Part shown: in pieces, positions 30,896-53,638 of the stretch
Layout: every line of letters begins with the position of its first letter
How positions within the stretch are numbered: the stretch's first letter is position 1
Assembly: GCA_032622095.1 (NCBI GenBank)
Contig: CP136064.1
Location: 5,199,512-5,263,511, forward strand
Source of the DNA: Siphonodentalium dalli
Lineage: Eukaryota > Mollusca > Scaphopoda > Gadilida > Siphonodentaliidae
DNA: 64,000 nucleotides
Reading direction: 5' to 3'
The notes under the pieces: generated by a model
The model's input: the letters and a program-made list of their open reading frames with translations, nothing else
The model's database searches: none
Told to the model about the DNA's origin: nothing
Translations under genes and position numbers: made by a program

Positions 30896-30934
30896 CCATC
30901 AACATGTTTGTATGTATGTTATGAATGCCCATGG

Positions 30935-31001
30935 CCCATACGGACCCTGCCTCATACGGACCACCTGCTGATACGGACCCTGGCTTATATGGAGCCTGGC
31001 T
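30935..31001 (-). repeat. Inverse cluster of the 17-bp minisatellite (copy A)
   Basis: CATACGGACCCTGCCTCATA, CGGACCACC and ATACGGACCCTGGCTTATAT are the reverse complement of the GGTCCRTATRAGCC array at 31,301-31,408. Confidence 0.8.
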
Positions 31002-31300
31002 ATTACGAAACATCAATTAAAATATACATTTTACACATATACATTTTTTTATATTTGTCTTTATTTAAATAAATTAAAATACTGACAACATACATTTATA
31101 CATGTACATGTATATGTACAGAAGCCAATATTTTGATATTATAAATTCTAGTAGTTGGACATTAGAACCTCAAGATTGTGCCATTGAGAAATGATTTATT
31201 ATATTGACACCTGGGTGACAGGAATTTAGAACTGGAAAGTCAAAATTCAAGCGTCAGTTTAGAAAAGTAAAATATAAATAAAATTGCATATTTTAATTGA

Positions 31301-31408
31301 GGTCCATATAAGCCAGGGTCCGTATGAGCCGGAGGTCCATATAAGCCAGGGTCCATATGAGCCGGTGGTCCGTATGAGCCAGGGTCCGTATGAGCGAGGG
31401 TCCGTATC
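31301..31408 (+). repeat. 16-17-bp minisatellite, seven units (copy A)
   Basis: GGTCC starts at about 31,301, 31,317, 31,334, 31,350, 31,367, 31,383 and 31,399, with alternating ATATAAGCC and GTATGAGCC bodies. Copy B has about nine units. Confidence 0.93.
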
Positions 31409-31731
31409 AATACGATGCATACAATGTGTTATAGACTCGAAAAGTGCTCGACCGATCCGACTCAAATTTGGTATGTACATGTAGGCCTACTTACTAGTAG
31501 ATCCCAGGAACAATATGGGCGGGTCCAATTTCATGTGCGACTGTGTCCTTGACCTTGACCTCGCTCATATAGGCATGTTTCTGGACCTATCAAACAAAAG
31601 TTTTTTTCTTTCTCCTAATACTTTTCAACGTTGTTCACTCAGTATTGTTCAACGTTGTCACTTTGAACTAGTAGTTCAATCTCTCATTGAAATCCCTAAT
31701 AGCCCGGACGATGTCGGGCACATCAGCTAGT
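31409..31731 (+). mobile_element. Possible Helitron-like 3' region (copy A)
   Basis: The segment ends with a short hairpin GCCCG...CGGGC (31,702-31,719), then ACATCAGCTAG followed by T. A hairpin about ten bases before a CTRR end with a T after it is the classic Helitron 3' signature. A convincing TC 5' terminus is not found. The body carries CTTGACCTTGACCTCGC and GACTCAAATTTGGTA. Function is inferred from the end only. Confidence 0.4.
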
Positions 31732-31768
31732 AACATATAACATGTAACATCAGTTGATAGGTAAAATA

Positions 31769-31922
31769 TAGTAATGCCCTAAATAATCGACTACTTAACC
31801 ACATCAGAATTATGGGTAAGTTTTCAGGATTTTGTCGGAAATATGGCTTGTTGCGCGCCATTCATTGGAAATCTCTCAATTTTGCTGTGGTTAAAGAGTC
31901 GATTATTTAGGGCATTACTGTT
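31769..31922. mobile_element. MITE family P, centre deleted (copy A)
   Basis: Outer arms TAGTAATGCCCTAAATAATC and GATTATTTAGGGCATTACTG are present. The centre and much of the right inner arm are missing (join at GGAAATCTCTCAATTTTGC). Confidence 0.82.
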
Positions 31923-32400
31923 AAACCATAAGGCCAAAATTAATAAATTGTTTGTTTGTCCACACCCCTACCCAAAAATTTTCAGGTGGGTAGGTATTTA
32001 GGGATTTTTTTTTTTGCAAGGTGGAATGGCATACTAAGGGTCCCCTCCGTGGTGCAGGCCGAGGGGATCAATATTAATAAATAGTAAGGGATTAATTTGA
32101 TAACAAATTAAAAATTTAATAGTTGGAAAAACACAACAAGAACAATAAATAATTATGCTGTTCAGTCACAGTTGCTGGAGTTTCTGACCGAAAATGAGCT
32201 TCTCAGACAACATACCACTACTTAAAAACAAAAACAAAAACTATTTTTTTTAAATTTAAAAAAAATTATTTATTTTTTTTAGCGATCTGAATAAAAGAAT
32301 TTCCAGTCGGGTGTTAAAATCGAGTCGGTCGGGGCGAGGACAAACAAATACCTTTTTAATTATGGCCTAAGTAACCACCATGTGTGCTCTGTGTAACAGG
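31923..32400. other. Gene-free stretch of copy A
   Basis: AT-rich, with T and A homopolymer runs. It contains GGTGGGTAGGTATTTAGGG and AATTTCCAGTCGGGTG, which look like parts of a dispersed repeat, but nothing definite. Copy B matches closely except for a shortened A-run. Confidence 0.4.
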
Positions 32401-32690
32401 CCTGAGAATAAGGTGCTGTCATTTGCAGAATGAGGTCCCCAGAGGGTGAATTTAGTGACGCTACCCCACACAGCGTGCTAGCATCACTAAATTCACCCTC
32501 TGGGGACCTCATTCTGTTTAGACCTCATCTTCTCTGGAAAGTTTCCTTATTATCAAATTTCTATAGAAACTCCTTCACATATATTAAATTTCTTTTTTAG
32601 TTTAGTTTCTCTATATCCCCAGATTGGCAGGTGGCACATTGCATAATCAAGGTTCCCAATGGGTGTACATCACATATTCACCTATTTGTA
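32401..32690. mobile_element. Family G left palindrome plus core (copy A)
   Basis: TGTCATTTGCAGAATGAGGTC and the full palindrome (32,426-32,516), then the core in the opposite orientation to 13 kb (CTCTGGAAAGTTTCC, TTGCATAATCAAGGTTCCCA). Confidence 0.82.
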
Positions 32691-32786
32691 CCCAATGTAA
32701 CCTACAGTAATGTACCCTGGGATTTCTAAGAAGATTGTCAGTAAAATAATAGCTACTTTGAGCAATAAACATATAACTGAATGACA

Positions 32787-33612
32787 ATCATATTCCACCA
32801 GTACAAAACCTTGGAACTTTTTGAAGTTTTGACAGGGAACCTAACAAAGACAACAAATAATGCAGGGAATAGATTTCTTAGTTATTCTCTGTTCTTAATT
32901 ATGTACTTCACTGTAGGCGAAGGGCCCAACTCGAAATTTCATAATTTAACCCTTTACCCAACAAACCGGCCAAAACCGGCCAAATAAAGCTTCAACAGCC
33001 TAAAATATCTTCGGTCTGTCTCAATAGAACCATACAAATATGGATATCATTGGAACCGGCTCCTTGACCACATTGTGATAGTTACAGTTATGCCCTGTGC
33101 CAATGCATTCTCTTATATATGCGAGTCGACCATAGGTCGCCTCGCATATATAAGAGAATGCATTGGCCTAAAAAAAACTTTTTTTAACACTTTGTACCAT
33201 TTTTTCTTACATTCTTTAACAATTTTATAATTTTTAATGTGTTCGGCCAATGCATTCTCTTATATATGCGAGGCGACCTATGGTCGACTCGCATATATAA
33301 GAGAATGCATTGGCACAGGGCCCTTCTGTTGGGTAAAGGGTTAAGTGAATTTATGAGCAATTTTGCCTTGAGTCGCTTACAATTATGGAATTTATCCTGG
33401 GTAATTCATTTGGTGTTTATTGTGATATTGGCTCACAAAATTCAGAGAAAAACATGCAATTTCGAGTTGGGACCTTCACCTACAGTGAAGCACATTATTA
33501 AGGAACAGATAACAACTTAGAAATATATTCCCCACATTTTTTTTTCTCGACTTTATAAGGTTCCCTGTCAAAACTTCAAAAAGTTCCAAGGTTTTGTACT
33601 GGTGGAATATGA
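32787..33612. repeat. Foldback structure around a type I MITE (copy A only)
   Basis: Inverted arms of about 160 bp (32,787-32,945 and 33,449-33,612). The outermost 53 bp are almost identical (ATCATATTCCACCAGTACAA start), and the inner parts differ at scattered bases and indels. The loop contains the type I MITE. Copy B keeps only the last part of the right arm. Confidence 0.9.
32946..33344 (+). mobile_element. MITE type I inside the foldback
   Basis: TTAA at 32,946-32,949 and 33,341-33,344, standard ends and both cassettes (33,097-33,167; 33,245-33,314). The frame at 33,239-33,520 is a palindrome translation. Confidence 0.94.
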
Positions 33613-33650
33613 TCTCTAAGGGCATTAGCCAGAGTAGAGATTCATGGCAA

Positions 33651-35548
33651 GTTTGTATATAAAATGGTGTATGTATATCCAACCGAAAGCCAATGACTGG
33701 CGGTAGCGCATGTTCCAAGGTGCCCGACACTATGTATGCTATGAATTTGGAAAGTCACTTTAAGCTAGTGTTTCGTGTCAATTTTTGTTCGCCGACACTC
33801 GTCAGGGGGAGGCGATTTAATTAGATAAGTTGACATTTTATATGTCTGTTAACATGTATTCCATGTGTATATAGTTTTTTGCCCCGTCATGTGGGATTGT
33901 TGGATTTGCAATTTTCATGCAATCATTCTGTTAACATGTATTCCATGTGTATATAGTTTTTTCCCGTCCTGGGATTGTTGGATTTGCAATTTTCATGCAA
34001 TCATTCTGTTAACATGTATTCCATGTGTATATAGTTTTTTCCCGTCATGGGATTGTTGGATTTGCAATGTTCATGCAATCATTCTGTTGGATGGTTTGTA
34101 GTTTCAGCCTCTCAGCATTCGCTGCCGATGTGAAGACTGCATGTTTCCGATATTTTGAGATGTGTATAGTATATAGCCAGCACGTGGCAGTTCAGCCGTC
34201 AATCACGCTTTAAGGCGTGTACAATGGCTTTAGTGCCCAGTCGAGTCAAGCTAACATACGTTGGTTAGGTCACGTGACGATATATGCCACATATGTGGTG
34301 TGAAATTGATACCTCTGATGTTGCGATAAGGAATTAATCACTTCTTTAATGTCTTATTTGACTCGCCGTTAATCTTAGTCTGACATATTTCTGACTGTAG
34401 CGTCAAGAATGAATAGATTACCATTAATTGGCACATATGTTTTCAGTCAAGTCTCTATCCAAGGTTTTTGGATTTCGAAGTTTGGCCAAGTTTAAATAAT
34501 GCCAAAACATATTTAGGTATATGTGACTTCTTCGGGTTGCATATTTTATGCAGTCTGCATATTGCATGCATTATATGTGGATATTCTTGGTGGAATCCAT
34601 CGGATTCAGTTTAAATTTGCATATTATATGCCATCTGTATGTTAATACCATATTAGCGAAAGAGCGTAACATCCACCACTCATCCCAAAGATATGGGTTG
34701 AAATAAATGGTAAATGCCAGTAGGCCCCCGCATGTGTGCAAATCCAGTCAAGATAGAGCATAGAATCAAATTGGATTGTCCAACTGAACTAGTGGGCTAT
34801 AGGTTCTTGCTGGCATGCCAGAACATGATACCAATTACGAATTTATCATTCTATAGGTAACAGTGGGTTCTAAATATCACATGCATCGCTTATGGATGAG
34901 AATTAATTCATGAGTATTGTCCAGACATCATCGATCATCTACACATCTAGGTGCACCCATTAATTTGGGATATTAATGTGTATAGCTATAGTGATAATAT
35001 AGTTGTATATTTAGCGTGTATTATTTGCTATAATGTACCATTGCAAGTTTGTGACCAGAGCGTGTACACGTGGTGTAATATGCACAATTGTAGTGCGCCC
35101 GTTAAGTGGGGTATTGTATATGTATAGCTATATCAATGATATAGCATTGTTACTGGAAACTACCGTTTCGGTATAGTTTATTCGATTAGTCCATCCTAAC
35201 ACCAAGGCTGGCGCAAATCCGATGATAAGCGGGTCCTTGAAATGTCATGTGTAAATCTAGCGTGTATCGTTAGTTGTAAAAGCAATACAGCATTATGAGT
35301 TAATGCCCCGAGTGAATACTCGTGGTGGTATATACACAATTGTAGTGTGCCCATTTAGGGATATTTGTTTAAGTATAGTTATTATAGCTATAATAAAGCA
35401 ATGTAGATGTCCATGAATTTTATAGTGACTTATCCAAGCATATTCGGATCACCTCAAAACAGCAACGTCGCCACACAGTCGAAGCAGTCAGGATCCCTGG
35501 TAGTTAAACCAGTTATTCAACAGGATTACTATCACCGAGGAATGTCAA
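33651..35548 (+). repeat. Monomer L1 (1,898 bp)
   Basis: First full unit. It follows copy A directly, after TTCATGGCA. Bases about 33,846-34,083 hold three near-identical subunits, CTGTTAACATGTATTCCATG..., of 82, 78 and 78 bp. Frames of 62 and 78 codons arise from them. Confidence 0.95.
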
Positions 35549-37446
35549 GTTTGTATATAAAATGGTGTATGTATATCCAACCGAAAGCCAATGACTGGCG
35601 GTAGCGCATGTTCCAAGGTGCCCGACACTATGTATGCTATGAATTTGGAAAGTCACTTTAAGCTAGTGTTTCGTGTCAATTTTTGTTCGCCGACACTCGT
35701 CAGGGGGAGGCGATTTAATTAGATAAGTTGACATTTTATATGTCTGTTAACATGTATTCCATGTGTATATAGTTTTTTGCCCCGTCATGTGGGATTGTTG
35801 GATTTGCAATTTTCATGCAATCATTCTGTTAACATGTATTCCATGTGTATATAGTTTTTTCCCGTCCTGGGATTGTTGGATTTGCAATTTTCATGCAATC
35901 ATTCTGTTAACATGTATTCCATGTGTATATAGTTTTTTCCCGTCATGGGATTGTTGGATTTGCAATGTTCATGCAATCATTCTGTTGGATGGTTTGTAGT
36001 TTCAGCCTCTCAGCATTCGCTGCCGATGTGAAGACTGCATGTTTCCGATATTTTGAGATGTGTATAGTATATAGCCAGCACGTGGCAGTTCAGCCGTCAA
36101 TCACGCTTTAAGGCGTGTACAATGGCTTTAGTGCCCAGTCGAGTCAAGCTAACATACGTTGGTTAGGTCACGTGACGATATATGCCACATATGTGGTGTG
36201 AAATTGATACCTCTGATGTTGCGATAAGGAATTAATCACTTCTTTAATGTCTTATTTGACTCGCCGTTAATCTTAGTCTGACATATTTCTGACTGTAGCG
36301 TCAAGAATGAATAGATTACCATTAATTGGCACATATGTTTTCAGTCAAGTCTCTATCCAAGGTTTTTGGATTTCGAAGTTTGGCCAAGTTTAAATAATGC
36401 CAAAACATATTTAGGTATATGTGACTTCTTCGGGTTGCATATTTTATGCAGTCTGCATATTGCATGCATTATATGTGGATATTCTTGGTGGAATCCATCG
36501 GATTCAGTTTAAATTTGCATATTATATGCCATCTGTATGTTAATACCATATTAGCGAAAGAGCGTAACATCCACCACTCATCCCAAAGATATGGGTTGAA
36601 ATAAATGGTAAATGCCAGTAGGCCCCCGCATGTGTGCAAATCCAGTCAAGATAGAGCATAGAATCAAATTGGATTGTCCAACTGAACTAGTGGGCTATAG
36701 GTTCTTGCTGGCATGCCAGAACATGATACCAATTACGAATTTATCATTCTATAGGTAACAGTGGGTTCTAAATATCACATGCATCGCTTATGGATGAGAA
36801 TTAATTCATGAGTATTGTCCAGACATCATCGATCATCTACACATCTAGGTGCACCCATTAATTTGGGATATTAATGTGTATAGCTATAGTGATAATATAG
36901 TTGTATATTTAGCGTGTATTATTTGCTATAATGTACCATTGCAAGTTTGTGACCAGAGCGTGTACACGTGGTGTAATATGCACAATTGTAGTGCGCCCGT
37001 TAAGTGGGGTATTGTATATGTATAGCTATATCAATGATATAGCATTGTTACTGGAAACTACCGTTTCGGTATAGTTTATTCGATTAGTCCATCCTAACAC
37101 CAAGGCTGGCGCAAATCCGATGATAAGCGGGTCCTTGAAATGTCATGTGTAAATCTAGCGTGTATCGTTAGTTGTAAAAGCAATACAGCATTATGAGTTA
37201 ATGCCCCGAGTGAATACTCGTGGTGGTATATACACAATTGTAGTGTGCCCATTTAGGGATATTTGTTTAAGTATAGTTATTATAGCTATAATAAAGCAAT
37301 GTAGATGTCCATGAATTTTATAGTGACTTATCCAAGCATATTCGGATCACCTCAAAACAGCAACGTCGCCACACAGTCGAAGCAGTCAGGATCCCTGGTA
37401 GTTAAACCAGTTATTCAACAGGATTACTATCACCGAGGAATGTCAA
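35549..37446 (+). repeat. Monomer L2 (1,898 bp)
   Basis: Full unit, no obvious difference from L1. The 65-codon frame at 35,407-35,604 spans the L1/L2 junction, so it exists only where monomers are tandem. Confidence 0.95.
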
Positions 37447-38095
37447 GTTTGTATATAAAATGGTGTATGTATATCCAACCGAAAGCCAATGACTGGCGGT
37501 AGCGCATGTTCCAAGGTGCCCGACACTATGTATGCTATGAATTTGGAAAGTCACTTTAAGCTAGTGTTTCGTGTCAATTTTTGTTCGCCGACACTCGTCA
37601 GGGGGAGGCGATTTAATTAGATAAGTTGACATTTTATATGTCTGTTAACATGTATTCCATGTGTATATAGTTTTTTGCCCCGTCATGTGGGATTGTTGGA
37701 TTTGCAATTTTCATGCAATCATTCTGTTAACATGTATTCCATGTGTATATAGTTTTTTCCCGTCCTGGGATTGTTGGATTTGCAATTTTCATGCAATCAT
37801 TCTGTTAACATGTATTCCATGTGTATATAGTTTTTTCCCGTCATGGGATTGTTGGATTTGCAATGTTCATGCAATCATTCTGTTGGATGGTTTGTAGTTT
37901 CAGCCTCTCAGCATTCGCTGCCGATGTGAAGACTGCATGTTTCCGATATTTTGAGATGTGTATAGTATATAGCCAGCACGTGGCAGTTCAGCCGTCAATC
38001 ACGCTTTAAGGCGTGTACAATGGCTTTAGTGCCCAGTCGAGTCAAGCTAACATACGTTGGTTAGGTCACGTGACGATATATGCCACATATGTGGT
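37447..38095 (+). repeat. Monomer L3, truncated to 649 bp
   Basis: Stops at CCACATATGTGGT. The next monomer begins at base 1 (GTTTGTATATAA at 38,096). Confidence 0.95.
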
Positions 38096-39993
38096 GTTTG
38101 TATATAAAATGGTGTATGTATATCCAACCGAAAGCCAATGACTGGCGGTAGCGCATGTTCCAAGGTGCCCGACACTATGTATGCTATGAATTTGGAAAGT
38201 CACTTTAAGCTAGTGTTTCGTGTCAATTTTTGTTCGCCGACACTCGTCAGGGGGAGGCGATTTAATTAGATAAGTTGACATTTTATATGTCTGTTAACAT
38301 GTATTCCATGTGTATATAGTTTTTTGCCCCGTCATGTGGGATTGTTGGATTTGCAATTTTCATGCAATCATTCTGTTAACATGTATTCCATGTGTATATA
38401 GTTTTTTCCCGTCCTGGGATTGTTGGATTTGCAATTTTCATGCAATCATTCTGTTAACATGTATTCCATGTGTATATAGTTTTTTCCCGTCATGGGATTG
38501 TTGGATTTGCAATGTTCATGCAATCATTCTGTTGGATGGTTTGTAGTTTCAGCCTCTCAGCATTCGCTGCCGATGTGAAGACTGCATGTTTCCGATATTT
38601 TGAGATGTGTATAGTATATAGCCAGCACGTGGCAGTTCAGCCGTCAATCACGCTTTAAGGCGTGTACAATGGCTTTAGTGCCCAGTCGAGTCAAGCTAAC
38701 ATACGTTGGTTAGGTCACGTGACGATATATGCCACATATGTGGTGTGAAATTGATACCTCTGATGTTGCGATAAGGAATTAATCACTTCTTTAATGTCTT
38801 ATTTGACTCGCCGTTAATCTTAGTCTGACATATTTCTGACTGTAGCGTCAAGAATGAATAGATTACCATTAATTGGCACATATGTTTTCAGTCAAGTCTC
38901 TATCCAAGGTTTTTGGATTTCGAAGTTTGGCCAAGTTTAAATAATGCCAAAACATATTTAGGTATATGTGACTTCTTCGGGTTGCATATTTTATGCAGTC
39001 TGCATATTGCATGCATTATATGTGGATATTCTTGGTGGAATCCATCGGATTCAGTTTAAATTTGCATATTATATGCCATCTGTATGTTAATACCATATTA
39101 GCGAAAGAGCGTAACATCCACCACTCATCCCAAAGATATGGGTTGAAATAAATGGTAAATGCCAGTAGGCCCCCGCATGTGTGCAAATCCAGTCAAGATA
39201 GAGCATAGAATCAAATTGGATTGTCCAACTGAACTAGTGGGCTATAGGTTCTTGCTGGCATGCCAGAACATGATACCAATTACGAATTTATCATTCTATA
39301 GGTAACAGTGGGTTCTAAATAGCACATGCATCGCTTATGGATGAGAATTAATTCATGAGTATTGTCCAGACATCATCGATCATCTACACATCTAGGTGCA
39401 CCCATTAATTTGGGATATTAATGTGTATAGCTATAGTGATAATATAGCTGTATATTTAGCGTGTATTATTTGCTATAATGTACCATTGCAAGTTTGTGAC
39501 CAGAGCGTGTACACGTGGTGTAATATGCACAATTGTAGTGCGCCCGTTAAGTGGGGTATTGTATATGTATAGCTATATCAATGATATAGCATTGTTACTG
39601 GAAACTACCGTTTCGGTATAGTTTATTCGATTAGTCCATCCTAACACCAAGGCTGGCGCAAATCCGATGATAAGCGGGTCCTTGAAATGTCATGTGTAAA
39701 TCTAGCGTGTATCGTTAGTTGTAAAAGCAATACAGCATTATGAGTTAATGCCCCGAGTGAATACTCGTGGTGGTATATACACAATTGTAGTGTGCCCATT
39801 TAGGGATATTTGTTTAAGTATAGTTATTATAGCTATAATAAAGCAATGTAGATGTCCATGAATTTTATAGTGACTTATCCAAGCATATTCGGATCACCTC
39901 AAAACAGCAACGTCGCCACACAGTCGAAGCAGTCAGGATCCCTGGTAGTTAAACCAGTTATTCAACAGGATTACTATCACCGAGGAATGTCAA
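38096..39993 (+). repeat. Monomer L4 (1,898 bp), variant block
   Basis: Carries AAATAGCAC (instead of AAATATCAC) near 39,318 and ATATAGCTG (instead of ATATAGTTG) near 39,445. Confidence 0.95.
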
Positions 39994-41891
39994 GTTTGTA
40001 TATAAAATGGTGTATGTATATCCAACCGAAAGCCAATGACTGGCGGTAGCGCATGTTCCAAGGTGCCCGACACTATGTATGCTATGAATTTGGAAAGTCA
40101 CTTTAAGCTAGTGTTTCGTGTCAATTTTTGTTCGCCGACACTCGTCAGGGGGAGGCGATTTAATTAGATAAGTTGACATTTTATATGTCTGTTAACATGT
40201 ATTCCATGTGTATATAGTTTTTTGCCCCGTCATGTGGGATTGTTGGATTTGCAATTTTCATGCAATCATTCTGTTAACATGTATTCCATGTGTATATAGT
40301 TTTTTCCCGTCCTGGGATTGTTGGATTTGCAATTTTCATGCAATCATTCTGTTAACATGTATTCCATGTGTATATAGTTTTTTCCCGTCATGGGATTGTT
40401 GGATTTGCAATGTTCATGCAATCATTCTGTTGGATGGTTTGTAGTTTCAGCCTCTCAGCATTCGCTGCCGATGTGAAGACTGCATGTTTCCGATATTTTG
40501 AGATGTGTATAGTATATAGCCAGCACGTGGCAGTTCAGCCGTCAATCACGCTTTAAGGCGTGTACAATGGCTTTAGTGCCCAGTCGAGTCAAGCTAACAT
40601 ACGTTGGTTAGGTCACGTGACGATATATGCCACATATGTGGTGTGAAATTGATACCTCTGATGTTGCGATAAGGAATTAATCACTTCTTTAATGTCTTAT
40701 TTGACTCGCCGTTAATCTTAGTCTGACATATTTCTGACTGTAGCTTCAAGAATGAATAGATTACCATTAATTGGCACATATGTTTTCAGTCAAGTCTCTA
40801 TCCAAGGTTTTTGGATTTCGAAGTTTGGCCAAGTTTAAATAATGCCAAAACATATTTAGGTATATGTGACTTCTTCGGGTTGCATATTTTATGCAGTCTG
40901 CATATTGCATGCATTATATGTGGATATTCTTGGTGGAATCCATCGGATTCAGTTTAAATTTGCATATTATATGCCATCTGTATGTTAATACCATATTAGC
41001 GAAAGAGCGTAACATCCACCACTCATCCCAAAGATATGGGTTGAAATAAATGGTAAATGCCAGTAGGCCCCCGCATGTGTGCAAATCCAGTCAAGATAGA
41101 GCATAGAATCAAATTGGATTGTCCAACTGAACTAGTGGGCTATAGGTTCTTGCTGGCATGCCAGAACATGATACCAATTACGAATTTATCATTCTATAGG
41201 TAACAGTGGGTTCTAAATAGCACATGCATCGCTTATGGATGAGAATTAATTCATGAGTATTGTCCAGACATCATCGATCATCTACACATCTAGGTGCACC
41301 CATTAATTTGGGATATTAATGTGTATAGCTATAGTGATAATATAGCTGTATATTTAGCGTGTATTATTTGCTATAATGTACCATTGCAAGTTTGTGACCA
41401 GAGCGTGTACACGTGGTGTAATATGCACAATTGTAGTGCGCCCGTTAAGTGGGGTATTGTATATGTATAGCTATATCAATGATATAGCATTGTTACTGGA
41501 AACTACCGTTTCGGTATAGTTTATTCGATTAGTCCATCCTAACACCAAGGCTGGCGCAAATCCGATGATAAGCGGGTCCTTGAAATGTCATGTGTAAATC
41601 TAGCGTGTATCGTTAGTTGTAAAAGCAATACAGCATTATGAGTTAATGCCCCGAGTGAATACTCGTGGTGGTATATACACAATTGTAGTGTGCCCATTTA
41701 GGGATATTTGTTTAAGTATAGTTATTATAGCTATAATAAAGCAATGTAGATGTCCATGAATTTTATAGTGACTTATCCAAGCATATTCGGATCACCTCAA
41801 AACAGCAACGTCGCCACACAGTCGAAGCAGTCAGGATCCCTGGTAGTTAAACCAGTTATTCAACAGGATTACTATCACCGAGGAATGTCAA
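39994..41891 (+). repeat. Monomer L5 (1,898 bp), variant block
   Basis: Shares both L4 variants and has a private TAGCTTCAAG (usual TAGCGTCAAG) near 40,742. Confidence 0.95.
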
Positions 41892-42786
41892 GTTTGTATA
41901 TAAAATGGTGTATGTATATCCAACCGAAAGCCAATGACTGGCGGTAGTGCATGTTCCAAGGTGCCCGACACTATGTATGCTATGAATTTGGAAAGTCACT
42001 TTAAGCTAGTGTTTCGTGTCAATTTTTGTTCGCCGACACTCGTCAGGGGGAGGCGATTTAATTAGATAAGTTGACATTTTATATGTCTGTTAACATGTAT
42101 TCCATGTGTATATAGTTTTTTGCCCCGTCATGTGGGATTGTTGGATTTGCAATTTTCATGCAATCATTCTGTTAACATGTATTCCATGTGTATATAGTTT
42201 TTTCCCGTCCTGGGATTGTTGGATTTGCAATTTTCATGCAATCATTCTGTTAACATGTATTCCATGTGTATATAGTTTTTTCCCGTCATGGGATTGTTGG
42301 ATTTGCAATGTTCATGCAATCATTCTGTTGGATGGTTTGTAGTTTCAGCCTCTCAGCATTCGCTGCCGATGTGAAGACTGCATGTTTCCGATATTTTGAG
42401 ATGTGTATAGTATATAGCCAGCACGTGGCAGTTCAGCCGTCAATCACGCTTTAAGGCGTGTACAATGGCTTTAGTGCCCAGTCGAGTCAAGCTAACATAC
42501 GTTGGTTATGTCACGTGACGATATATGCCACATATGTGGTGTGAAATTGATACCTCTGATGTTGCGATAAGGAATTAATCACTTCTTTAATGTCTTATTT
42601 GACTCGCCGTTAATCTTAGTCTGACATATTTCTGACTGTAGCGTCAAGAATGAATAGATTACCATTAATTGGCACATATGTTTTCAGTCAAGTCTCTATC
42701 CAAGGTTTTTGGATTTCGAAGTTTGGCCAAGTTTAAATAATGCCAAAACATATTTAGGTATATGTGACTTCTTCGGGTTGCATATT
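41892..42786 (+). repeat. Monomer L6, truncated at the array centre
   Basis: About 895 bp, ending in CTTCGGGTTGCATATTTG. Private changes are GTAGTGCATG near 41,947 and GGTTATGTCACG near 42,507. Confidence 0.93.
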
Positions 42787-43113
42787 TGTTGCGGGTTTGT
42801 ATATAAAATGGTGTATGTATATCCAACCGAAAGCCAATGACTGGCGGTAGCGGGTTGGATATACATACTGGTTGCATATTTGTATATAAAATGGTGTATG
42901 TACTGCATATACTGGTTGCATATACATACGGGTTGCATATTTGTTGCGGGTTTGTATATAAAATGGTGTATGTATATCCAACCGAAAGCCAATGACTGGC
43001 GGTTGCGGGTTGGATATACATACACCATTTTATATACAACCTTGGAACATGCGCTACCGCCAGTCATTGGCTTTCGGTTGGATATACATACACCATTTTA
43101 TATACATACCAGG
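42787..43113. repeat. Array centre: shuffled inverted monomer starts
   Basis: Several short copies of the monomer's first 20-60 bp (at 42,795, about 42,880 and about 42,953 in +; about 43,010-43,042 and 43,078-43,110 in -) alternate with GGTTGCATATTTG and GGTTGGATATACATAC. A hairpin with a stem of about 33 bp surrounds GAAAGCCAATGACTGGCGG. The 123-124-codon minus frames and the 91-codon plus frame here are translations of this repetition. Confidence 0.92.
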
Positions 43114-44959
43114 GATCCTGACTGCTTCGACTGTGTGGCGACGTTGCTGTTTTGAGGTGATCCGAATATGCTTGGATAAGTCACTATAAAATTCATGGAC
43201 ATCTACATTGCTTTATTATAGCTATAATAACTATACTTAAACAAATATCCCTAAATGGGCACACTACAATTGTGTATATACCACCACGAGTATTCACTCG
43301 GGGCATTAACTCATAATGCTGTATTGCTTTTACAACTAACGATACACGCTAGATTTACACATGACATTTCAAGGACCCGCTTATCATCGGATTTGCGCCA
43401 GCCTTGGTGTTAGGATGGACTAATCGAATAAACTATACCGAAACGGTAGTTTCCAGTAACAATGCTATATCATTGATATAGCTATACATATACAATACCC
43501 CACTTAACGGGCGCACTACAATTGTGCATATTACACCACGTGTACACGCTCTGGTCACAAACTTGCAATGGTACATTATAGCAAATAATACACGCTAAAT
43601 ATACAACTATATTATCACTATAGCTATACACATTAATATCCCAAATTAATGGGTGCACCTAGATGTGTAGATGATCGATGATGTCTGGACAATACTCATG
43701 AATTAATTCTCATCCATAAGCGATGCATGTGATATTTAGAACCCACTGTTACCTATAGAATGATAAATTCGTAATTGGTATCATGTTCTGGCATGCCAGC
43801 AAGAACCTATAGCCCACTAGTTCAGTTGGACAATCCAATTTGATTCTATGCTCTATCTTGACTGGATTTGCACACATGCGGGGGCCTACTGGCATTTACC
43901 ATTTATTTCAACCCATATCTTTGGGATGAGTGGTGGATGTTACGCTCTTTCGCTAATATGGTATTAACATACAGATGGCATATAATATGCAAATTTAAAC
44001 TGAATCCGATGGATTCCACCAAGAATATCCACATATAATGCATGCAATATGCAGACTGCATAAAATATGCAACCCGAAGAAGTCACATATACCTAAATAT
44101 GTTTTGGCATTATTTAAACTTGGCCAAACTTCGAAATCCAAAAACCTTGGATAGAGACTTGACTGAAAACATATGTGCCAATTAATGGTAATCTATTCAT
44201 TCTTGACGCTACAGTCAGAAATATGTCAGACTAAGATTAACGGCGAGTCAAATAAGACATTAAAGAAGTGATTAATTCCTTATCGCAACATCAGAGGTAT
44301 CAATTTCACACCACATATGTGGCATATATCGTCACGTGACCTAACCAACGTATGTTAGCTTGACTCGACTGGGCACTAAAGCCATTGTACACGCCTTAAA
44401 GCGTGATTGACGGCTGAACTGCCACGTGCTGGCTATATACTATACACATCTCAAAATATCGGAAACATGCAGTCTTCACATCGGCAGCGAATGCTGAGAG
44501 GCTGAAACTACAAACCATCCAACAGAATGATTGCATGAACATTGCAAATCCAACAATCCCATGACGGGAAAAAACTATATACACATGGAATACATGTTAA
44601 CAGAATGATTGCATGAAAATTGCAAATCCAACAATCCCAGGACGGGAAAAAACTATATACACATGGAATACATGTTAACAGAATGATTGCATGAAAATTG
44701 CAAATCCAACAATCCCACATGACGGGGCAAAAAAACTATATACACATGGAATACATGTTAACAGACATATAAAATGTCAACTTATCTAATTAAATCGCCT
44801 CCCCCTGACGAGTGTCGGCGAACAAAAATTGACACGAAACACTAGCTTAAAGTGACTTTCCAAATTCATAGCATACATAGTGTCGGGCACCTTGGAACAT
44901 GCGCTACCGCCAGTCATTGGCTTTCGGTTGGATATACATACACCATTTTATATACAAAC
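43114..44959 (-). repeat. Monomer R1, slightly truncated
   Basis: Inverse unit lacking about 50 bp at the centre side (CATACCAGGGATCC join). One extra A near 44,707 breaks the 78-codon subunit frame. Carries the L1/L2-type bases at the L4/L5 diagnostic positions. Confidence 0.94.
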
Positions 44960-46857
44960 TTGACATTCCTCGGTGATAGTAATCCTGTTGAATAACTGGT
45001 TTAACTACCAGGGATCCTGACTGCTTCGACTGTGTGGCGACGTTGCTGTTTTGAGGTGATCCGAATATGCTTGGATAAGTCACTATAAAATTCATGGACA
45101 TCTACATTGCTTTATTATAGCTATAATAACTATACTTAAACAAATATCCCTAAATGGGCACACTACAATTGTGTATATACCACCACGAGTATTCACTCGG
45201 GGCATTAACTCATAATGCTGTATTGCTTTTACAACTAACGATACACGCTAGATTTACACATGACATTTCAAGGACCCGCTTATCATCGGATTTGCGCCAG
45301 CCTTGGTGTTAGGATGGACTAATCGAATAAACTATACCGAAACGGTAGTTTCCAGTAACAATGCTATATCATTGATATAGCTATACATATACAATACCCC
45401 ACTTAACGGGCGCACTACAATTGTGCATATTACACCACGTGTACACGCTCTGGTCACAAACTTGCAATGGTACATTATAGCAAATAATACACGCTAAATA
45501 TACAACTATATTATCACTATAGCTATACACATTAATATCCCAAATTAATGGGTGCACCTAGATGTGTAGATGATCGATGATGTCTGGACAATACTCATGA
45601 ATTAATTCTCATCCATAAGCGATGCATGTGATATTTAGAACCCACTGTTACCTATAGAATGATAAATTCGTAATTGGTATCATGTTCTGGCATGCCAGCA
45701 AGAACCTATAGCCCACTAGTTCAGTTGGACAATCCAATTTGATTCTATGCTCTATCTTGACTGGATTTGCACACATGCGGGGGCCTACTGGCATTTACCA
45801 TTTATTTCAACCCATATCTTTGGGATGAGTGGTGGATGTTACGCTCTTTCGCTAATATGGTATTAACATACAGATGGCATATAATATGCAAATTTAAACT
45901 GAATCCGATGGATTCCACCAAGAATATCCACATATAATGCATGCAATATGCAGACTGCATAAAATATGCAACCCGAAGAAGTCACATATACCTAAATATG
46001 TTTTGGCATTATTTAAACTTGGCCAAACTTCGAAATCCAAAAACCTTGGATAGAGACTTGACTGAAAACATATGTGCCAATTAATGGTAATCTATTCATT
46101 CTTGACGCTACAGTCAGAAATATGTCAGACTAAGATTAACGGCGAGTCAAATAAGACATTAAAGAAGTGATTAATTCCTTATCGCAACATCAGAGGTATC
46201 AATTTCACACCACATATGTGGCATATATCGTCACGTGACCTAACCAACGTATGTTAGCTTGACTCGACTGGGCACTAAAGCCATTGTACACGCCTTAAAG
46301 CGTGATTGACGGCTGAACTGCCACGTGCTGGCTATATACTATACACATCTCAAAATATCGGAAACATGCAGTCTTCACATCGGCAGCGAATGCTGAGAGG
46401 CTGAAACTACAAACCATCCAACAGAATGATTGCATGAACATTGCAAATCCAACAATCCCATGACGGGAAAAAACTATATACACATGGAATACATGTTAAC
46501 AGAATGATTGCATGAAAATTGCAAATCCAACAATCCCAGGACGGGAAAATACTATATACACATGGAATACATGTTAACAGAATGATTGCATGAAAATTGC
46601 AAATCCAACAATCCCACATGACGGGGCAAAAAACTATATACACATGGAATACATGTTAACAGACATATAAAATGTCAACTTATCTAATTAAATCGCCTCC
46701 CCCTGACGAGTGTCGGCGAACAAAAATTGACACGAAACACTAGCTTAAAGTGACTTTCCAAATTCATAGCATACATAGTGTCGGGCACCTTGAAACATGC
46801 GCTACCGCCAGTCATTGGCTTTCGGTTGGATATACATACACCATTTTATATACAAAC
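44960..46857 (-). repeat. Monomer R2 (1,898 bp)
   Basis: Full inverse unit. Private changes are GGGAAAATACTAT near 46,545 and CCTTGAAACATG near 46,792. Confidence 0.95.
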
Positions 46858-48756
46858 TTGACATTCCTCGGTGATAGTAATCCTGTTGAATAACTGGTTT
46901 AACTACCAGGGATCCTGACTGCTTCGACTGTGTGGCGACGTTGCTGTTTTGAGGTGATCCGAATATGCTTGGATAAGTCACTATAAAATTCATGGACATC
47001 TACATTGCTTTATTATAGCTATAATAACTATACTTAAACAAATATCCCTAAATGGGCACACTACAATTGTGTATATACCACCACGAGTATTCACTCGGGG
47101 CATTAACTCATAATGCTGTATTGCTTTTACAACTAACGATACACGCTAGATTTACACATGACATTTCAAGGACCCGCTTATCATCGGATTTGCGCCAGCC
47201 TTGGTGTTAGGATGGACTAATCGAATAAACTATACCGAAACGGTAGTTTCCAGTAACAATGCTATATCATTGATATAGCTATACATATACAATACCCCAC
47301 TTAACGGGCGCACTACAATTGTGCATATTACACCACGTGTACACGCTCTGGTCACAAACTTGCAATGGTACATTATAGCAAATAATACACGCTAAATATA
47401 CAACTATATTATCACTATAGCTATACACATTAATATCCCAAATTAATGGGTGCACCTAGATGTGTAGATGATCGATGATGTCTGGACAATACTCATGAAT
47501 TAATTCTCATCCATAAGCGATGCATGTGATATTTAGAACCCACTGTTACCTATAGAATGATAAATTCGTAATTGGTATCATGTTCTGGCATGCCAGCAAG
47601 AACCTATAGCCCACTAGTTCAGTTGGACAATCCAATTTGATTCTATGCTCTATCTTGACTGGATTTGCACACATGCGGGGGCCTACTGGCATTTACCATT
47701 TATTTCAACCCATATCTTTGGGATGAGTGGTGGATGTTACGCTCTTTCGCTAATATGGTATTAACATACAGATGGCATATAATATGCAAATTTAAACTGA
47801 ATCCGATGGATTCCACCAAGAATATCCACATATAATGCATGCAATATGCAGACTGCATAAAATATGCAACCCGAAGAAGTCACATATACCTAAATATGTT
47901 TTGGCATTATTTAAACTTGGCCAAACTTCGAAATCCAAAAACCTTGGATAGAGACTTGACTGAAAACATATGTGCCAATTAATGGTAATCTATTCATTCT
48001 TGACGCTACAGTCAGAAATATGTCAGACTAAGATTAACGGCGAGTCAAATAAGACATTAAAGAAGTGATTAATTCCTTATCGCAACATCAGAGGTATCAA
48101 TTTCACACCACATATGTGGCATATATCGTCACGTGACCTAACCAACGTATGTTAGCTTGACTCGACTGGGCACTAAAGCCATTGTACACGCCTTAAAGCG
48201 TGATTGACGGCTGAACTGCCACGTGCTGGCTATATACTATACACATCTCAAAATATCGGAAACATGCAGTCTTCACATCGGCAGCGAATGCTGAGAGGCT
48301 GAAACTACAAACCATCCAACAGAATGATTGCATGAACATTGCAAATCCAACAATCCCATGACGGGAAAAAACTATATACACATGGAATACATGTTAACAG
48401 AATGATTGCATGAAAATTGCAAATCCAACAATCCCAGGACGGGAAAAAACTATATACACATGGAATACATGTTAACAGAATGATTGCATGAAAATTGCAA
48501 ATCCAACAATCCCACATGACGGGGCAAAAAACTATATACACATGGAATACATGTTAACAGACATATAAAATGTCAACTTATCTAATTAAATCGCCTCCCC
48601 CTGACGAGTGTCGGCGAACAAAAATTGACACGAAACACTAGCTTAAAGTGACTTTCCAAATTCATAGCATACATAGTGTCGGGCACCTTGGAACATGCGC
48701 TACCCGCCAGTCATTGGCTTTCGGTTGGATATACATACACCATTTTATATACAAAC
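46858..48756 (-). repeat. Monomer R3 (1,899 bp)
   Basis: Full inverse unit with one extra C (GCTACCCGCCAG near 48,703). Confidence 0.95.
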
Positions 48757-50654
48757 TTGACATTCCTCGGTGATAGTAATCCTGTTGAATAACTGGTTTA
48801 ACTACCAGGGATCCTGACTGCTTCGACTGTGTGGCGACGTTGCTGTTTTGAGGTGATCCGAATATGCTTGGATAAGTCACTATAAAATTCATGGACATCT
48901 ACATTGCTTTATTATAGCTATAATAACTATACTTAAACAAATATCCCTAAATGGGCACACTACAATTGTGTATATACCACCACGAGTATTCACTCGGGGC
49001 ATTAACTCATAATGCTGTATTGCTTTTACAACTAACGATACACGCTAGATTTACACATGACATTTCAAGGACCCGCTTATCATCGGATTTGCGCCAGCCT
49101 TGGTGTTAGGATGGACTAATCGAATAAACTATACCGAAACGGTAGTTTCCAGTAACAATGCTATATCATTGATATAGCTATACATATACAATACCCCACT
49201 TAACGGGCGCACTACAATTGTGCATATTACACCACGTGTACACGCTCTGGTCACAAACTTGCAATGGTACATTATAGCAAATAATACACGCTAAATATAC
49301 AACTATATTATCACTATAGCTATACACATTAATATCCCAAATTAATGGGTGCACCTAGATGTGTAGATGATCGATGATGTCTGGACAATACTCATGAATT
49401 AATTCTCATCCATAAGCGATGCATGTGATATTTAGAACCCACTGTTACCTATAGAATGATAAATTCGTAATTGGTATCATGTTCTGGCATGCCAGCAAGA
49501 ACCTATAGCCCACTAGTTCAGTTGGACAATCCAATTTGATTCTATGCTCTATCTTGACTGGATTTGCACACATGCGGGGGCCTACTGGCATTTACCATTT
49601 ATTTCAACCCATATCTTTGGGATGAGTGGTGGATGTTACGCTCTTTCGCTAATATGGTATTAACATACAGATGGCATATAATATGCAAATTTAAACTGAA
49701 TCCGATGGATTCCACCAAGAATATCCACATATAATGCATGCAATATGCAGACTGCATAAAATATGCAACCCGAAGAAGTCACATATACCTAAATATGTTT
49801 TGGCATTATTTAAACTTGGCCAAACTTCGAAATCCAAAAACCTTGGATAGAGACTTGACTGAAAACATATGTGCCAATTAATGGTAATCTATTCATTCTT
49901 GACGCTACAGTCAGAAATATGTCAGACTAAGATTAACGGCGAGTCAAATAAGACATTAAAGAAGTGATTAATTCCTTATCGCAACATCAGAGGTATCAAT
50001 TTCACACCACATATGTGGCATATATCGTCACGTGACCTAACCAACGTATGTTAGCTTGACTCGACTGGGCACTAAAGCCATTGTACACGCCTTAAAGCGT
50101 GATTGACGGCTGAACTGCCACGTGCTGGCTATATACTATACACATCTCAAAATATCGGAAACATGCAGTCTTCACATCGGCAGCGAATGCTGAGAGGCTG
50201 AAACTACAAACCATCCAACAGAATGATTGCATGAACATTGCAAATCCAACAATCCCATGACGGGAAAAAACTATATACACATGGAATACATGTTAACAGA
50301 ATGATTGCATGAAAATTGCAAATCCAACAATCCCAGGACGGGAAAAAACTATATACACATGGAATACATGTTAACAGAATGATTGCATGAAAATTGCAAA
50401 TCCAACAATCCCACATGACGGGGCAAAAAACTATATACACATGGAATACATGTTAACAGACATATAAAATGTCAACTTATCTAATTAAATCGCCTCCCCC
50501 TGACGAGTGTCGGCGAACAAAAATTGACACGAAACACTAGCTTAAAGTGACTTTCCAAATTCATAGCATACATAGTGTCGGGCACCTTGGAACATGCGCT
50601 ACCGCCAGTCATTGGCTTTCGGTTGGATATACATACACCATTTTATATACAAAC
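48757..50654 (-). repeat. Monomer R4 (1,898 bp), outer right unit
   Basis: Full inverse unit. It ends on the complement of monomer base 1 (TATATACAAAC at 50,654), immediately before GCATGTTTC. Confidence 0.95.
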
Positions 50655-51269
50655 GCATGTTTCTTTTGATTTTTATCATACCATTTCAAGAGACCACGAG
50701 TCCTTCAACTTTGAATCATATCGTCGGCGTTTTGCCTGTCTTTCCGCAGAATCAGACATTTAAAAATTATAATGTATTGTCGCCAATTTACTGAGACATA
50801 TATAAATGACCATATATAGGGGTCTCTGTTTGTATACAATGCAGGAGCCGATTTCGACTTTAGTCCGAAATGCTTAAAGCTTGTTTGCAATCCAATATGA
50901 AAACAATCTGGCATAGTTAATATTAGTTTTATAACGCGAGGTTCATTCATCCTTTGTTTGTTAAAACATGTGGGTGACAAACCATTTGTTGCCAGACTAA
51001 TTACCCGCGGCACATTCAAATGGCAGCTACTCCAAGCTATCGTGTTATCATTGCGTAACAGCAGTGTCTGCACCGGCTGCTAAACAATCACACCCAGGTA
51101 GTCTCGCATATTCTCGCTTACCGCGTTATAATACAATGAAAACTAAAGTAACTTTTTATTATTTTTTGTTTGAGAAGATTGTTTCAAACCGTGAGATTAG
51201 GAGGTGTCGCCGTGACACCGTGAGATGCATGGTGAAAGCGGGAGTCTCACGGCGAATCCGTGAGAAGTA
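50655..51269. other. Single-copy-looking spacer between array and copy B
   Basis: Not matched elsewhere in the window. The minus frame at 50,705-51,073 (122 codons) is the longest frame outside a repeat but shows no domain, signal peptide or low-complexity bias I recognise. CCGTGAGA / TCTCACGG motifs in both orientations cluster at about 51,190-51,266. Confidence 0.5.
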
Positions 51270-51414
51270 ACAGGTCTGGTATGTACTATTATAGACAAAT
51301 GTATATTAAATACATCATGGACGAAGATAATCCCTGAATAACTCTATAGTCTACATGTATGTTGTCCAAAAGTGCTAAATTACAAGTGCACCGCTGGGCG
51401 GAGGTAATGCCCCC

Positions 51415-52036
51415 GACTGTACATTAAGTCGAAAAAGGGTCATAACTCGCACAAAAACTATCTGATTGAACCAAAATTTTACCTTGACCTGTATTGCGAT
51501 ATTGGTAATACACAAAAAAACGGGTTTTGCAAATAAACAATCCAAAATCAAGTTATCATCTGGAAACCAAAAAAAGTAGCAGAAAACCTGAATTTTCTAA
51601 GTCCAAAAAGGGGCGTAACTCTGGAAAAAATGGGCAAACGAAACCACGGCTATGGGGAAATCTTGTCCCCCCCCCCCCCCCCCCCCCCCCCCCGGCTGGT
51701 CTATTGGCATACGAAAGATCAACTGAATTGAATTAGCGAAACCAAAGTTATGAGTTGAAACGTTCGTATGCCACAGAAAACTGAATTTTCTAAGTCCAAA
51801 AAGGGGCGTAACTCTGGAAAAAATGGGCGGACGAAACCGCAGTTATGGGGAAATCTTGTCCCCCCCGGCTGGTCTATTAGCATACCAAAGATCAACTGAA
51901 TTGAGTTAGCGAAACCAAAGTTATGAGTTGAAACGTTCGTACGGACGGAAGGACGGACGGACGGAAGGACGGACGGATGGACGGAGGGCTCCACTATATA
52001 CCCCCAAATCTCCATCGGAGATCGGGGGCATAATAA
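51415..52036 (+). repeat. Mollusc-style dispersed repeat with extra unit (copy B)
   Basis: As at 24,655-25,093, but the GAATTTTCTAAGTCC..GGGGCGTAAC unit occurs twice (about 51,590 and 51,783). The first unit has a run of 27 C at 51,667-51,693. Ends with CGGACGGA tracts and the TACCCCCAAATCTCC stem. The 129-codon minus frame over it is an artefact. Confidence 0.8.
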
Positions 52037-52926
52037 GTCTGATTCTGAGCAACATCTAATATACTTGCAAATTGCTTGTATATCTGTGTGGGTCGTTTTG
52101 CAAAACAATGTTTTGAGTTGCTCAAATTAACATGAAGAACCTGGTAGGCAAGATACCAAATTTTTTGAATAGGATATCATGTTGGCGCCCATGTTTCGCT
52201 CAAGAAAGAAAGAAGTGCTCCATGTTGCATGTTGCACATTTTCTATCCCCACGATAAATTTTCAGTCTTTTGTATCTGTCAGTTTCGACAGCCAATCTAT
52301 GAGCTCTAATTCTCATCATAGTCAAGTATTGAGTATCAGACAGAACATGTGCTAAGATATGTCAATCAAAGAAAGCACATTCTCACTTTTGATTACTTCA
52401 AGTGTTCATAAAAAAACTGCACATAGATTCTTTACTTTGACTATGATAGCTTCCTAACAGACAGGGGAGGCCCAGTATTATACTCAGATTTAAAACAGCC
52501 CCCATCATTACACAGGGTTTTTTACCCCCACCTCTCAAGATGTGTTATCATGTTACTAATAGACTTAACCCCAGCTTCATCAATGGATTCTTACATTCAG
52601 TTATAAAAATTATACATTGGAATAGTCTATTCTTCATTTGTAGGGATGTTCGGTCAACAGACAGAGATGCATTATATTAAAAGAGGCTGTTTATTGCACT
52701 TATTATCTAGTTGGGTTTTTTCCCCAAAAAAACCTAATGGTTTCATTCGAGTGATAGCACTCATCAAGTAGCAATTTACCATAACACACGCACTGCTTTA
52801 TTTACTGGGGAAAATACACCATTATAATAGATAAACTTTGCACACATTTTCGAAAGCAACACTTCATGGTTTCAAGGGACACAAGCTGTCTAATTAAATC
52901 AAAATGAATATGCCATGGTATGTGAA
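52037..52926. other. Gene-free stretch of copy B
   Basis: Counterpart of 25,094-25,983. No gene is seen. Confidence 0.45.
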
Positions 52927-53326
52927 TTAACCCTTTACCCAACAGAACGGCCCTGTGCCAATGCATTCTCTTATATATGCGAGTTGACCATAGGTCGCCT
53001 CGCATATATAAGAGAATGCATTGGCTTAACACATTAAAAATTATAAAATTGTTAAAGAATGTAAGAAAAAATGGTAAAAAGTGTTAAAAAAATTTTTTAT
53101 TTAGGCCAATGCATTCTCTTCTATATGCGAGGCGACTTATGGTCGACTCGCATATATAAGAGAATGCATTGGCACAGGGTATAACTGTAACTATCACAAT
53201 GTGGTCAAGGAGCCGGTTCCAATGATATCCATATTTGTATGGTTCTATTGAGACAGACCGAAGATATTTTAGGCTGTTGAAGCTTTATTTGGCCGGTTTT
53301 GGCCGGTTTGTTGGGTAAAGGGTTAA
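52927..53326 (-). mobile_element. MITE type I (copy B)
   Basis: TTAA at 52,927-52,930 and 53,323-53,326. It differs from the copy A element by a few bases in the cassettes (GAGTTGACC, CTTCTATATGC, GGCGACTTATGG). The same roughly 33-bp direct flank repeat is present. Confidence 0.95.
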
Positions 53327-53638
53327 ATCAAAATGAATATGCCATGTTATGTGAACTAACAAACCAACGAATGTACGTGTACTGTATAAATCCTAATATT
53401 AATAATCTTTTAATTAAATTTTTCTGCCAAAATAAAAATTGTATCCCCAAGCACTCCCAGAAGCCTCTATCCCACTGTCCTACTCCCAGGGGTTTATGCT
53501 ACTCCCAGCGATTAGTCATTTTTTCTTTTATGGGGTGGGGGGATACTATTATTGCGCATGCGGCAATAGTAAAATATCATACCGTAAATAAATGTGATCC
53601 ATTTACCTTATTTAGTTGTTTTTGGTAGCCTTGAGCTT
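53327..53638. other. Gene-free stretch of copy B
   Basis: Counterpart of 26,384-26,691. The 109-codon frame starting at 53,299 inside the MITE is not credible: its C-terminus differs from copy A after a 4-bp insertion. Confidence 0.4.

What the first reader, a model, noticed from the sequence alone, without database searches (positions are those of the whole stretch)
33651..50654. 17-kb opposed array of a 1,898-bp unit whose two outer ends are the same monomer base
Seen: the block begins on GTTTGTATATAAAATGG at 33,651 and ends on its exact complement at 50,654. Satellite arrays normally end at arbitrary phase. Phase-locked, inverted outer ends are what a mobile unit, or an amplicon made from a unit with a defined terminus, would leave. 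The near-identity of about nine units implies recent amplification or strong homogenisation. Inference: this may be an undescribed macrosatellite-forming mobile element or a giant foldback.
Basis: partly seen in the sequence, partly recalled or inferred. Interest (0 to 1): 0.87.

Follow-up and report, generated by a model that had tools for sequence, protein, structure and literature searches.

The report
Ribozyme retroelement builds opposed 1.9-kb arrays
A mollusc-like animal carries a 1.9-kb non-coding repeat, apparently a selfish RNA with its own cutting ribozyme, whose arrays look like records of reverse transcription that starts at one base, runs round the unit several times and stops almost anywhere.

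Summary
In detail: 33651-50654 is two opposed arrays of an almost invariant 1,898-bp non-coding unit, with unit base 1 at both outer ends. Decomposition gives a rule: blocks begin at base 1, run up to four full turns, and stop at an arbitrary base. It also holds in further arrays of the same genome: over 12 loci, window included, 28 of 31 block starts fall in 10 of 1,898 positions, while 33 stops scatter from 25 to 1852. 4 of 13 loci are opposed. Read on the other strand, blocks have a fixed 3' end and 5' truncation, like reverse transcripts. On that strand each complete unit carries a type I hammerhead-like motif; two loci on different contigs have blocks that stop at its predicted cut (base 75), and 5 of 33 stops lie at 70-76. 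Best reading: an unusually large animal retrozyme, copied by Penelope-type reverse transcription with one internal start and priming from both target strands. Ribozyme activity, RNA, partner enzyme and long reads are untested; Rfam does not call the ribozyme. Host: mollusc-like. New variant of a known kind.

The parts
33651..38095 (-). Block L1: starts at unit base 1 (33651), two full turns, stops at base 649-651. Strand given is the inferred RNA sense.
38096..42787 (-). Block L2: new start at base 1-3, two full turns, stops at base 896; its complete units carry the common 1227G and 1353C.
42788..43106 (.). Scrambled central joint: mini-blocks 1-58, 2-25, 1-54 (left chain) and 4-70, 3-34 (right chain), with two copies of the filler GTTGCGG.
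43107..50654 (+). Block R: starts at unit base 1 (50654), runs leftwards three full turns, stops at base 1852. Shares the private 1227T and 1353T with L1.
33723..33808 (-). Type I hammerhead-like motif in the first unit (unit bases 158-73); predicted cut between unit bases 76 and 75 (window 33726/33725).
   Evidence: not reported by Rfam; not the minimum-energy fold
50497..50582 (+). The same motif in the last unit; 10 copies of it in the window in all.
33845..34088 (.). Internal 78-bp tandem repeat, 3.1 copies, present in each complete unit of the window.
24515..33649 (.). Left flank: copy 1 of a direct segmental duplication; its homology to copy 2 ends at the array boundary.
50655..51278 (.). 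624-bp filler between the array and duplication copy 2; no match elsewhere in the window, 20 kb upstream or 80 kb downstream.
51279..59758 (.). Copy 2 of the duplication, without the array: the left empty-site comparison.

Best explanation
The unit is a non-autonomous retroelement of the retrozyme kind, 1,898 nt long and without a protein gene, that spreads as ribozyme-bearing RNA copied by a Penelope-type reverse transcriptase supplied in trans. SHOWN: blocks start at one base (unit base 1), run up to four full turns of the unit and stop at arbitrary bases; after a stop a new block often begins, again at base 1; some loci hold two chains facing each other with base 1 outward and a joint between; units of one array share private variants; each complete unit examined has a type I hammerhead-like motif, and some blocks stop at or within five bases of its predicted cut. 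INFERRED: the RNA is the strand that reads minus in L1 and L2; reverse transcription is primed by a cut target end, or by the 3' end of a finished cDNA, and begins at the same internal RNA site 75 nt downstream of the ribozyme cut; several turns come from circular or multimeric RNA; a stop at base 75 is run-off at the 5' end of self-cut RNA; opposed chains arise because both target strands prime, and the two cDNA ends are then joined by error-prone end joining.
For: 28 of 31 block starts over 12 loci within 10 of 1,898 positions; 33 stops spread from 25 to 1852. Chains restart at base 1 after arbitrary stops: window, L009, L011, L016, L039, L042. Opposed chains in 4 of 13 loci. Array-wide private variants in 5 arrays; mean difference 1.58 within arrays (36 pairs) against 6.30 between (416 pairs); window blocks L1 and R share variants absent from all 24 complete units elsewhere. 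Hammerhead pattern in 10 of 10 window units that span it and nowhere else in 64 kb; 0 hits in 24 Mb of simulated sequence, both strands. 5 of 33 stops at 70-76 (binomial 1.5e-7; 4 of 32 and 6e-6 with the L016 repeat counted once), two loci with stops at 74-75. Published precedent: a Penelope enzyme extends both target strands and starts internally, 85-92 nt downstream of its hammerhead cut by subtraction (PMC11167929); Penelope copies form partial tandems and head-to-head inverted repeats (PMC3846280).
Against: Rfam reports no hammerhead in the window at gathering scores, nor in 33500-37700 at E up to 10. Stem I has only three contiguous pairs, and the hammerhead fold (-10.2 kcal/mol) is not the minimum (-16.5). 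The motif pattern was written after seeing the motif, and the width 70-76 was chosen after seeing stops. Only 2 of 32 stops are at exactly 74-75 (p 5e-4). Three starts are elsewhere (19, 1104, 700). No target-site duplication in 9 loci; AT-rich target preference was not tested. No polymerase, RNA or Penelope partner was shown: the PF01541 search did not complete. Base-1 query use favours places with base 1 among L039-L042.
Confidence: 0.72

Rival explanations
1. Rolling-circle DNA: an extrachromosomal 1,898-bp DNA circle or a Helitron-like element is nicked at base 1, unrolled several times and inserted.
For: Fixed start, several turns, arbitrary stop and array-wide variants are also what rolling-circle DNA copying would give.
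Against: Neither unit end reads TC or CTRR and the second end is not fixed (the motifs are recalled). Stops near the hammerhead cut, restarts at base 1 on unrelated ends and base-1-outward opposed chains need extra assumptions.
Confidence: 0.14
2. Assembly fold or haplotype mis-join: the opposed arrangement is made by the assembler from head-to-tail arrays or two haplotypes.
For: The centre is scrambled, and the direct duplication on both sides (98% over 5.4 kb, 94% over 2.4 kb) could be two haplotypes laid end to end. No reads were examined.
Against: The flanks are not mirrored. Blocks L1 and L2 differ in variants. Opposed joints recur at L018, L039 and L042 with different break points. The start rule holds in one-way arrays too.
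Confidence: 0.07
3. Ordinary macrosatellite shaped by unequal crossing-over, with array-wide variants from concerted evolution and inversions added later.
For: Near-identical head-to-tail units and array-specific variants.
Against: Array edges are phase-locked on one side at unrelated loci, and breaks inside arrays restart at the same base.
Confidence: 0.04
4. DNA transposon of the foldback kind, with the opposed arrays as giant terminal inverted repeats.
For: Identical, inverted outer ends in the window, L018 and L042.
Against: 9 of 13 loci show no opposed chain in the stretch fetched; no target-site duplication in 9 loci; one end arbitrary.
Confidence: 0.03

Closest known systems
Metazoan non-LTR retrozymes with type I hammerheads (PMC7229834: abstract, Discussion and passages read)
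   Same: Non-coding tandem repeats of low GC with a type I hammerhead-like motif per unit, in dispersed arrays; the paper proposes tandem cDNA made from circular RNA and names Penelope-like elements as strong candidate helpers.
   Different: Unit 1,898 bp against 150-450 bp there (RNAs of about 170-400 nt; the Discussion speaks of circles from 150 to over 1000 nt). Fixed start, chained blocks, opposed chains and stops at the predicted cut were not in the parts I read.
Penelope-like elements (PMC11167929, parts 1-2 of 4; PMC3846280, passages)
   Same: Tandem and 5'-truncated copies, head-to-head inverted repeats, insertions with or without target duplication, a hammerhead upstream of the reverse-transcription start (85-92 nt by subtraction; 75 nt here), and priming from both strands in vitro.
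   Different: No reverse transcriptase or endonuclease gene in the unit. Penelope hammerheads are described as minimal, lacking helix III (PMC7761336, passages); here stem III has six pairs.
Helentron-borne satellite-like repeats of oyster (PMC7492417, search listing only)
   Same: Dispersed satellite-like arrays in a mollusc genome carried by a mobile element.
   Different: Those repeats are carried by Helentron elements; here the whole unit is repeated and only one end is fixed.
Delta-virus-like circular RNAs with hammerheads in animals (PMC7936874, search listing only)
   Same: Circular RNA with a hammerhead; genome size near 1.7 kb is recalled, not looked up.
   Different: The unit has no long reading frame and sits in nuclear arrays.

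Membership tests
Metazoan retrozyme | Type I hammerhead motif in each repeat unit | tested here: inconclusive
   Core and stems II and III present in each complete unit by count and core kept in two diverged copies; Rfam silent; no cleavage assay; loop-loop contacts not tested
Metazoan retrozyme | Tandem repeats in multiple dispersed copies | tested here: met
   13 loci on contigs C3, C4, C6, C8 and C9
Metazoan retrozyme | Low GC (below 50%) | tested here: met
   36.7-39.7% in 1-kb bins inside the array
Metazoan retrozyme | Unit of about 150-450 bp | tested here: not met
   1,898 bp
Metazoan retrozyme | Expressed as linear and circular RNA | not testable with these tools
   no reads available
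Penelope-like element | ORF with reverse transcriptase and usually GIY-YIG endonuclease | tested here: not met
   No ORF of 150 aa or more in the window; longest stop-to-stop frame inside the unit listed is 82 aa
Penelope-like element | Tandem plus head-to-head inverted copies with 5' truncation | tested here: met
   Opposed chains in 4 of 13 loci; fixed 3' end, variable 5' end
Penelope-like element | Internal reverse-transcription start downstream of a hammerhead | tested here: inconclusive
   Start 75 nt downstream of the predicted cut; biochemistry not tested
Penelope-like element | Partner element in the same genome | not tested
   PF01541 searches did not complete
Helitron or Helentron | Two defined ends (5' TC, 3' CTRR hairpin; recalled) | tested here: not met
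   Only one end is defined; unit reads GTTTG...TGTCAA
TIR or foldback DNA transposon | Inverted termini in every copy and a target-site duplication | tested here: not met
   4 of 13 loci opposed; no duplication in 9 loci
Ordinary satellite | Arrays end at arbitrary phase on both sides | tested here: not met
   28 of 31 block starts at base 1 within 10 positions

The most novel reading that the evidence does not exclude
An animal RNA replicon of 1.9 kb, several times larger than the retrozyme units in the papers I read, whose genomic arrays record single reverse-transcription events base by base: one internal start site whatever the primer, several turns round a circular or multimeric RNA, re-priming from the finished cDNA end, both target strands used at once, and run-off at the ribozyme cut. 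It would be genomic evidence for the link between retrozymes and Penelope-type integration that has been proposed as a hypothesis, and a way to make a macrosatellite with inverted arms in one step.
Probability: 0.5. Interest if true: 0.82.

Novelty: new variant of a known kind. Interest (0 to 1): 0.7.

Why it matters
How animal retrozymes get back into DNA is open; the 2020 paper names Penelope-like elements as strong candidates on indirect grounds (PMC7229834, Discussion). Here near-identical arrays preserve start, stop and restart points, so initiation site, processivity, template switching and in vivo ribozyme cutting could be read from an assembly and tested with reads. It also suggests how a tandem, even opposed, satellite-like array can arise at once by reverse transcription rather than slowly by unequal exchange.

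Tried and rejected
Rfam over the window at gathering scores: 0 matches. Rfam over 33500-37700 at E up to 10: six sub-threshold matches to three unrelated families, no hammerhead. tRNA scan: none. Coding search: no ORF of 150 aa or more, longest frame inside the unit 82 aa. Rod-like RNA: circular minimum energy of the minus strand -463 against -409 +/- 20 in 12 simulations (z -2.8), 56% of bases paired; the plus strand is lower still at -537, so folding energy does not point to the RNA strand I infer. Right empty site: the 624-bp flank was sought over the window, 20 kb upstream and 80 kb downstream without success. Target duplications: nine loci, none at the joints. A first alignment of units mixed in over-extended partial units; its list is noisy and was replaced by the 31 complete units. 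Genome-wide counts of stops at base 75 and of all unit starts, and the search for a GIY-YIG partner, did not complete.

Papers: PMC7229834 abstract, Discussion and passages; PMC11167929 parts 1-2 of 4; PMC3846280 and PMC7761336 passages; all others search listings only. PMC4209133 is not held.
Full report
WHAT IS THERE. The window is animal DNA. A stretch 10-20 kb to its left (L028) holds a protein-tyrosine sulfotransferase frame. Of 2,992 matches the best 120 were listed; the first named one is a lancelet (57% identity) and the other named ones among the first 25 rows are molluscs at 65-72%. The genome held is 2.23 Gb in 9 contigs and the window is C4:5199512-5263511. The block 33651-50654 consists of a 1,898-bp unit, forward on the left and reverse on the right, with base 1 at both outer ends. 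The unit has no long reading frame, an internal 78-bp repeat, and only chance-level similarity to the rest of the window.

THE RULE. Decomposing the block (window part) gives chains rather than one array. From the left: base 1 to two turns plus 649-651; base 1-3 to two turns plus 896; then mini-blocks 1-58, 2-25 and 1-54. From the right: base 1 to three turns plus 1852; then 4-70; then 3-34. Each of these starts within a few bases of base 1. The chains meet between 42788 and 43106 in a scrambled joint that also holds a 16-bp piece starting at base 19 and two identical filler runs; it looks like error-prone end joining (inference).

THE RULE ELSEWHERE. I fetched 12 further loci from the same genome: L009, L010, L011 with L012, L013, L014, L015, L016 with L017, L018, L039, L040, L041 and L042. 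L040 and L041 were fetched in part and L039 has both edges inside the array. They come from the best-scored candidates (8 of 579, 40 of 585), so decayed fragments are under-sampled, and one search used bases 1-195 as query. After removing overlaps, 28 of 31 block starts lie at -5..+4 of the circle (0 = base 1898). The exceptions are the 16-bp piece in the window (19), a 104-bp piece in L010 (1104) and a 57-bp fragment in L042 (700). The 33 stops run from 25 to 1852. One end is fixed and the other arbitrary. Opposed chains with base 1 outward occur in the window, L018 and L042. L039 has the head-to-head joint; its outer ends lie outside the fetched stretch, and a forward base-1 start not preceded by A lies to its left at C4:70384126. 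That makes 4 of 13 loci.

WHO COPIED WHOM. Among 31 complete units, private variants are shared by all complete units of an array: six in L016, three in L014, two in L011, two in L015, one in L010. The mean difference is 1.58 within arrays on one strand (36 pairs) against 6.30 between arrays (416 pairs). In the window the five complete units of L1 and R share 1227T and 1353T, absent from all 24 complete units elsewhere, while the two of L2 have the common 1227G and 1353C. The two outer, opposed blocks therefore come from one template type and L2 from another. In L018 the forward and the reverse complete unit share no private variant. In L011 a variant at 1878 alternates (units 2 and 4 of 4), as a two-unit circle would give; with four units this is only a hint. 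Array-wide variants would also result if a homogeneous source array were transcribed as one long RNA, so they do not by themselves prove a circle.

THE RIBOZYME. On the minus strand of forward units lies CCC-CTGACGA-GTGTC...GACAC-GAAA-CACTA...TAGTGTC-GGG: a type I hammerhead arrangement with stem II of five pairs (seven with G-U), stem III of six and stem I of three contiguous pairs. The pattern matches the 10 window units that span it and nothing else in 64 kb; counts in the fetched loci equal the number of units that span it. It has no match in 24 Mb of simulated sequence, both strands, with the caveat that I wrote the pattern after seeing the motif. Two diverged copies keep the core and the stem III pairs; changes fall in loops, beside stem I, and as one extra base in stem II. 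Against it: Rfam does not report it, and the motif is not the minimum-energy fold (-10.2 against -16.5 kcal/mol).

A LINK BETWEEN THE TWO. The predicted cut leaves a 5' end at unit base 75. Two blocks of L016 stop at exactly 75, each followed by one extra T and a new base 1; they may be one event duplicated. In L039, on another contig, a block stops at 74-75 and is followed at once by a new start, and a second block stops at 72. Overall 5 of 33 stops lie in 70-76 (binomial 1.5e-7; 4 of 32 and 6e-6 counting L016 once; exactly 74-75, 2 of 32 and 5e-4), 14 of 33 are at 75 or less, and none lies in 76-114. The width was chosen after seeing the stops, and the short pieces cluster in complex joints, so the 14 are weaker evidence than the 5.

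MECHANISM. A fixed 3' end, 5' truncation and restarts at the same base on unrelated ends fit reverse transcription that starts at one internal RNA site. The published Penelope-like enzyme of the anole cleaves and extends both target strands and starts 111-118 into the ORF, with the hammerhead cut at 26 (PMC11167929, parts 1-2 of 4): 85-92 nt downstream of the cut by subtraction; here it is 75. In that system the ribozyme was not needed for insertion in vitro. Penelope copies show direct plus head-to-head inverted repeats, with or without target duplications (PMC3846280, passages). Priming by both strands would explain opposed arrays with base 1 outward. Several turns need circular or multimeric RNA; stops at 75 argue that at least some templates were linear and self-cut. 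The published retrozyme model proposes tandem cDNA from circular RNA and names Penelope-like elements as strong candidates (PMC7229834, Discussion).

CONTEXT OF THE WINDOW COPY. A direct duplication flanks the array: 24515-33649 against 51279-59758, 98% over 5.4 kb, 94% over 2.4 kb and 91% over 0.5 kb, with an insertion of about 0.87 kb in copy 1. Its homology ends at the left array boundary, and copy 2 continues without the array. Between the array and copy 2 lie 624 bp not found in the window, 20 kb upstream or 80 kb downstream. Either the insertion was repaired with a tandem duplication, or an older duplication or two haplotypes laid end to end are involved; I cannot tell, though the divergence of the copies favours the latter pair.

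FILING. It is not a Penelope-like element (no enzyme gene), it fails the size range of animal retrozymes, and it lacks Helitron and TIR-transposon ends. It works like a retrozyme integrated by Penelope-type chemistry. I file it as a new variant of a known kind. Ribozyme activity, RNA, the partner and long-read support remain untested.

Noticed in passing
window 24515-33649 and 51279-59758: Direct segmental duplication (91-98% over its pieces) whose junction holds the array plus a 624-bp filler of unknown origin; possibly two haplotypes laid end to end.
   Followed up: partly
window 1-2855: 68-bp satellite array running off the left edge of the window.
   Followed up: no
window 11529-12165: 49-bp tandem repeat, 13 copies at 98% match.
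   Followed up: no
window 7010-7394, 8259-8654, 9866-10228, 25983-26385, 32944-33344, 52926-53330, 60592-60992: Family of about 400-bp elements with inverted ends and internal palindromes, MITE-like, at about 85-98% identity to each other.
   Followed up: no
window 32723-33587: Insertion of about 0.87 kb in duplication copy 1, absent from copy 2, with inverted arms (32787-32942 against 33613-33454) around one of the MITE-like elements.
   Followed up: partly
L011:594-8185: Variant at unit base 1878 alternates over four units (A, G, A, G), as copying of a two-unit circle would give; could be chance.
   Followed up: no
L011:9544-9745 and L042:487-1442: Diverged subfamily of the unit that keeps the hammerhead core, showing more than one wave of activity.
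   Followed up: partly
L022:2898-3950 (+), on C4 about 32 kb right of the window: 351-residue open frame with a weak Pfam match to Pox_A32 (E 5e-6), perhaps a remnant of a large DNA transposon or virus.
   Followed up: no
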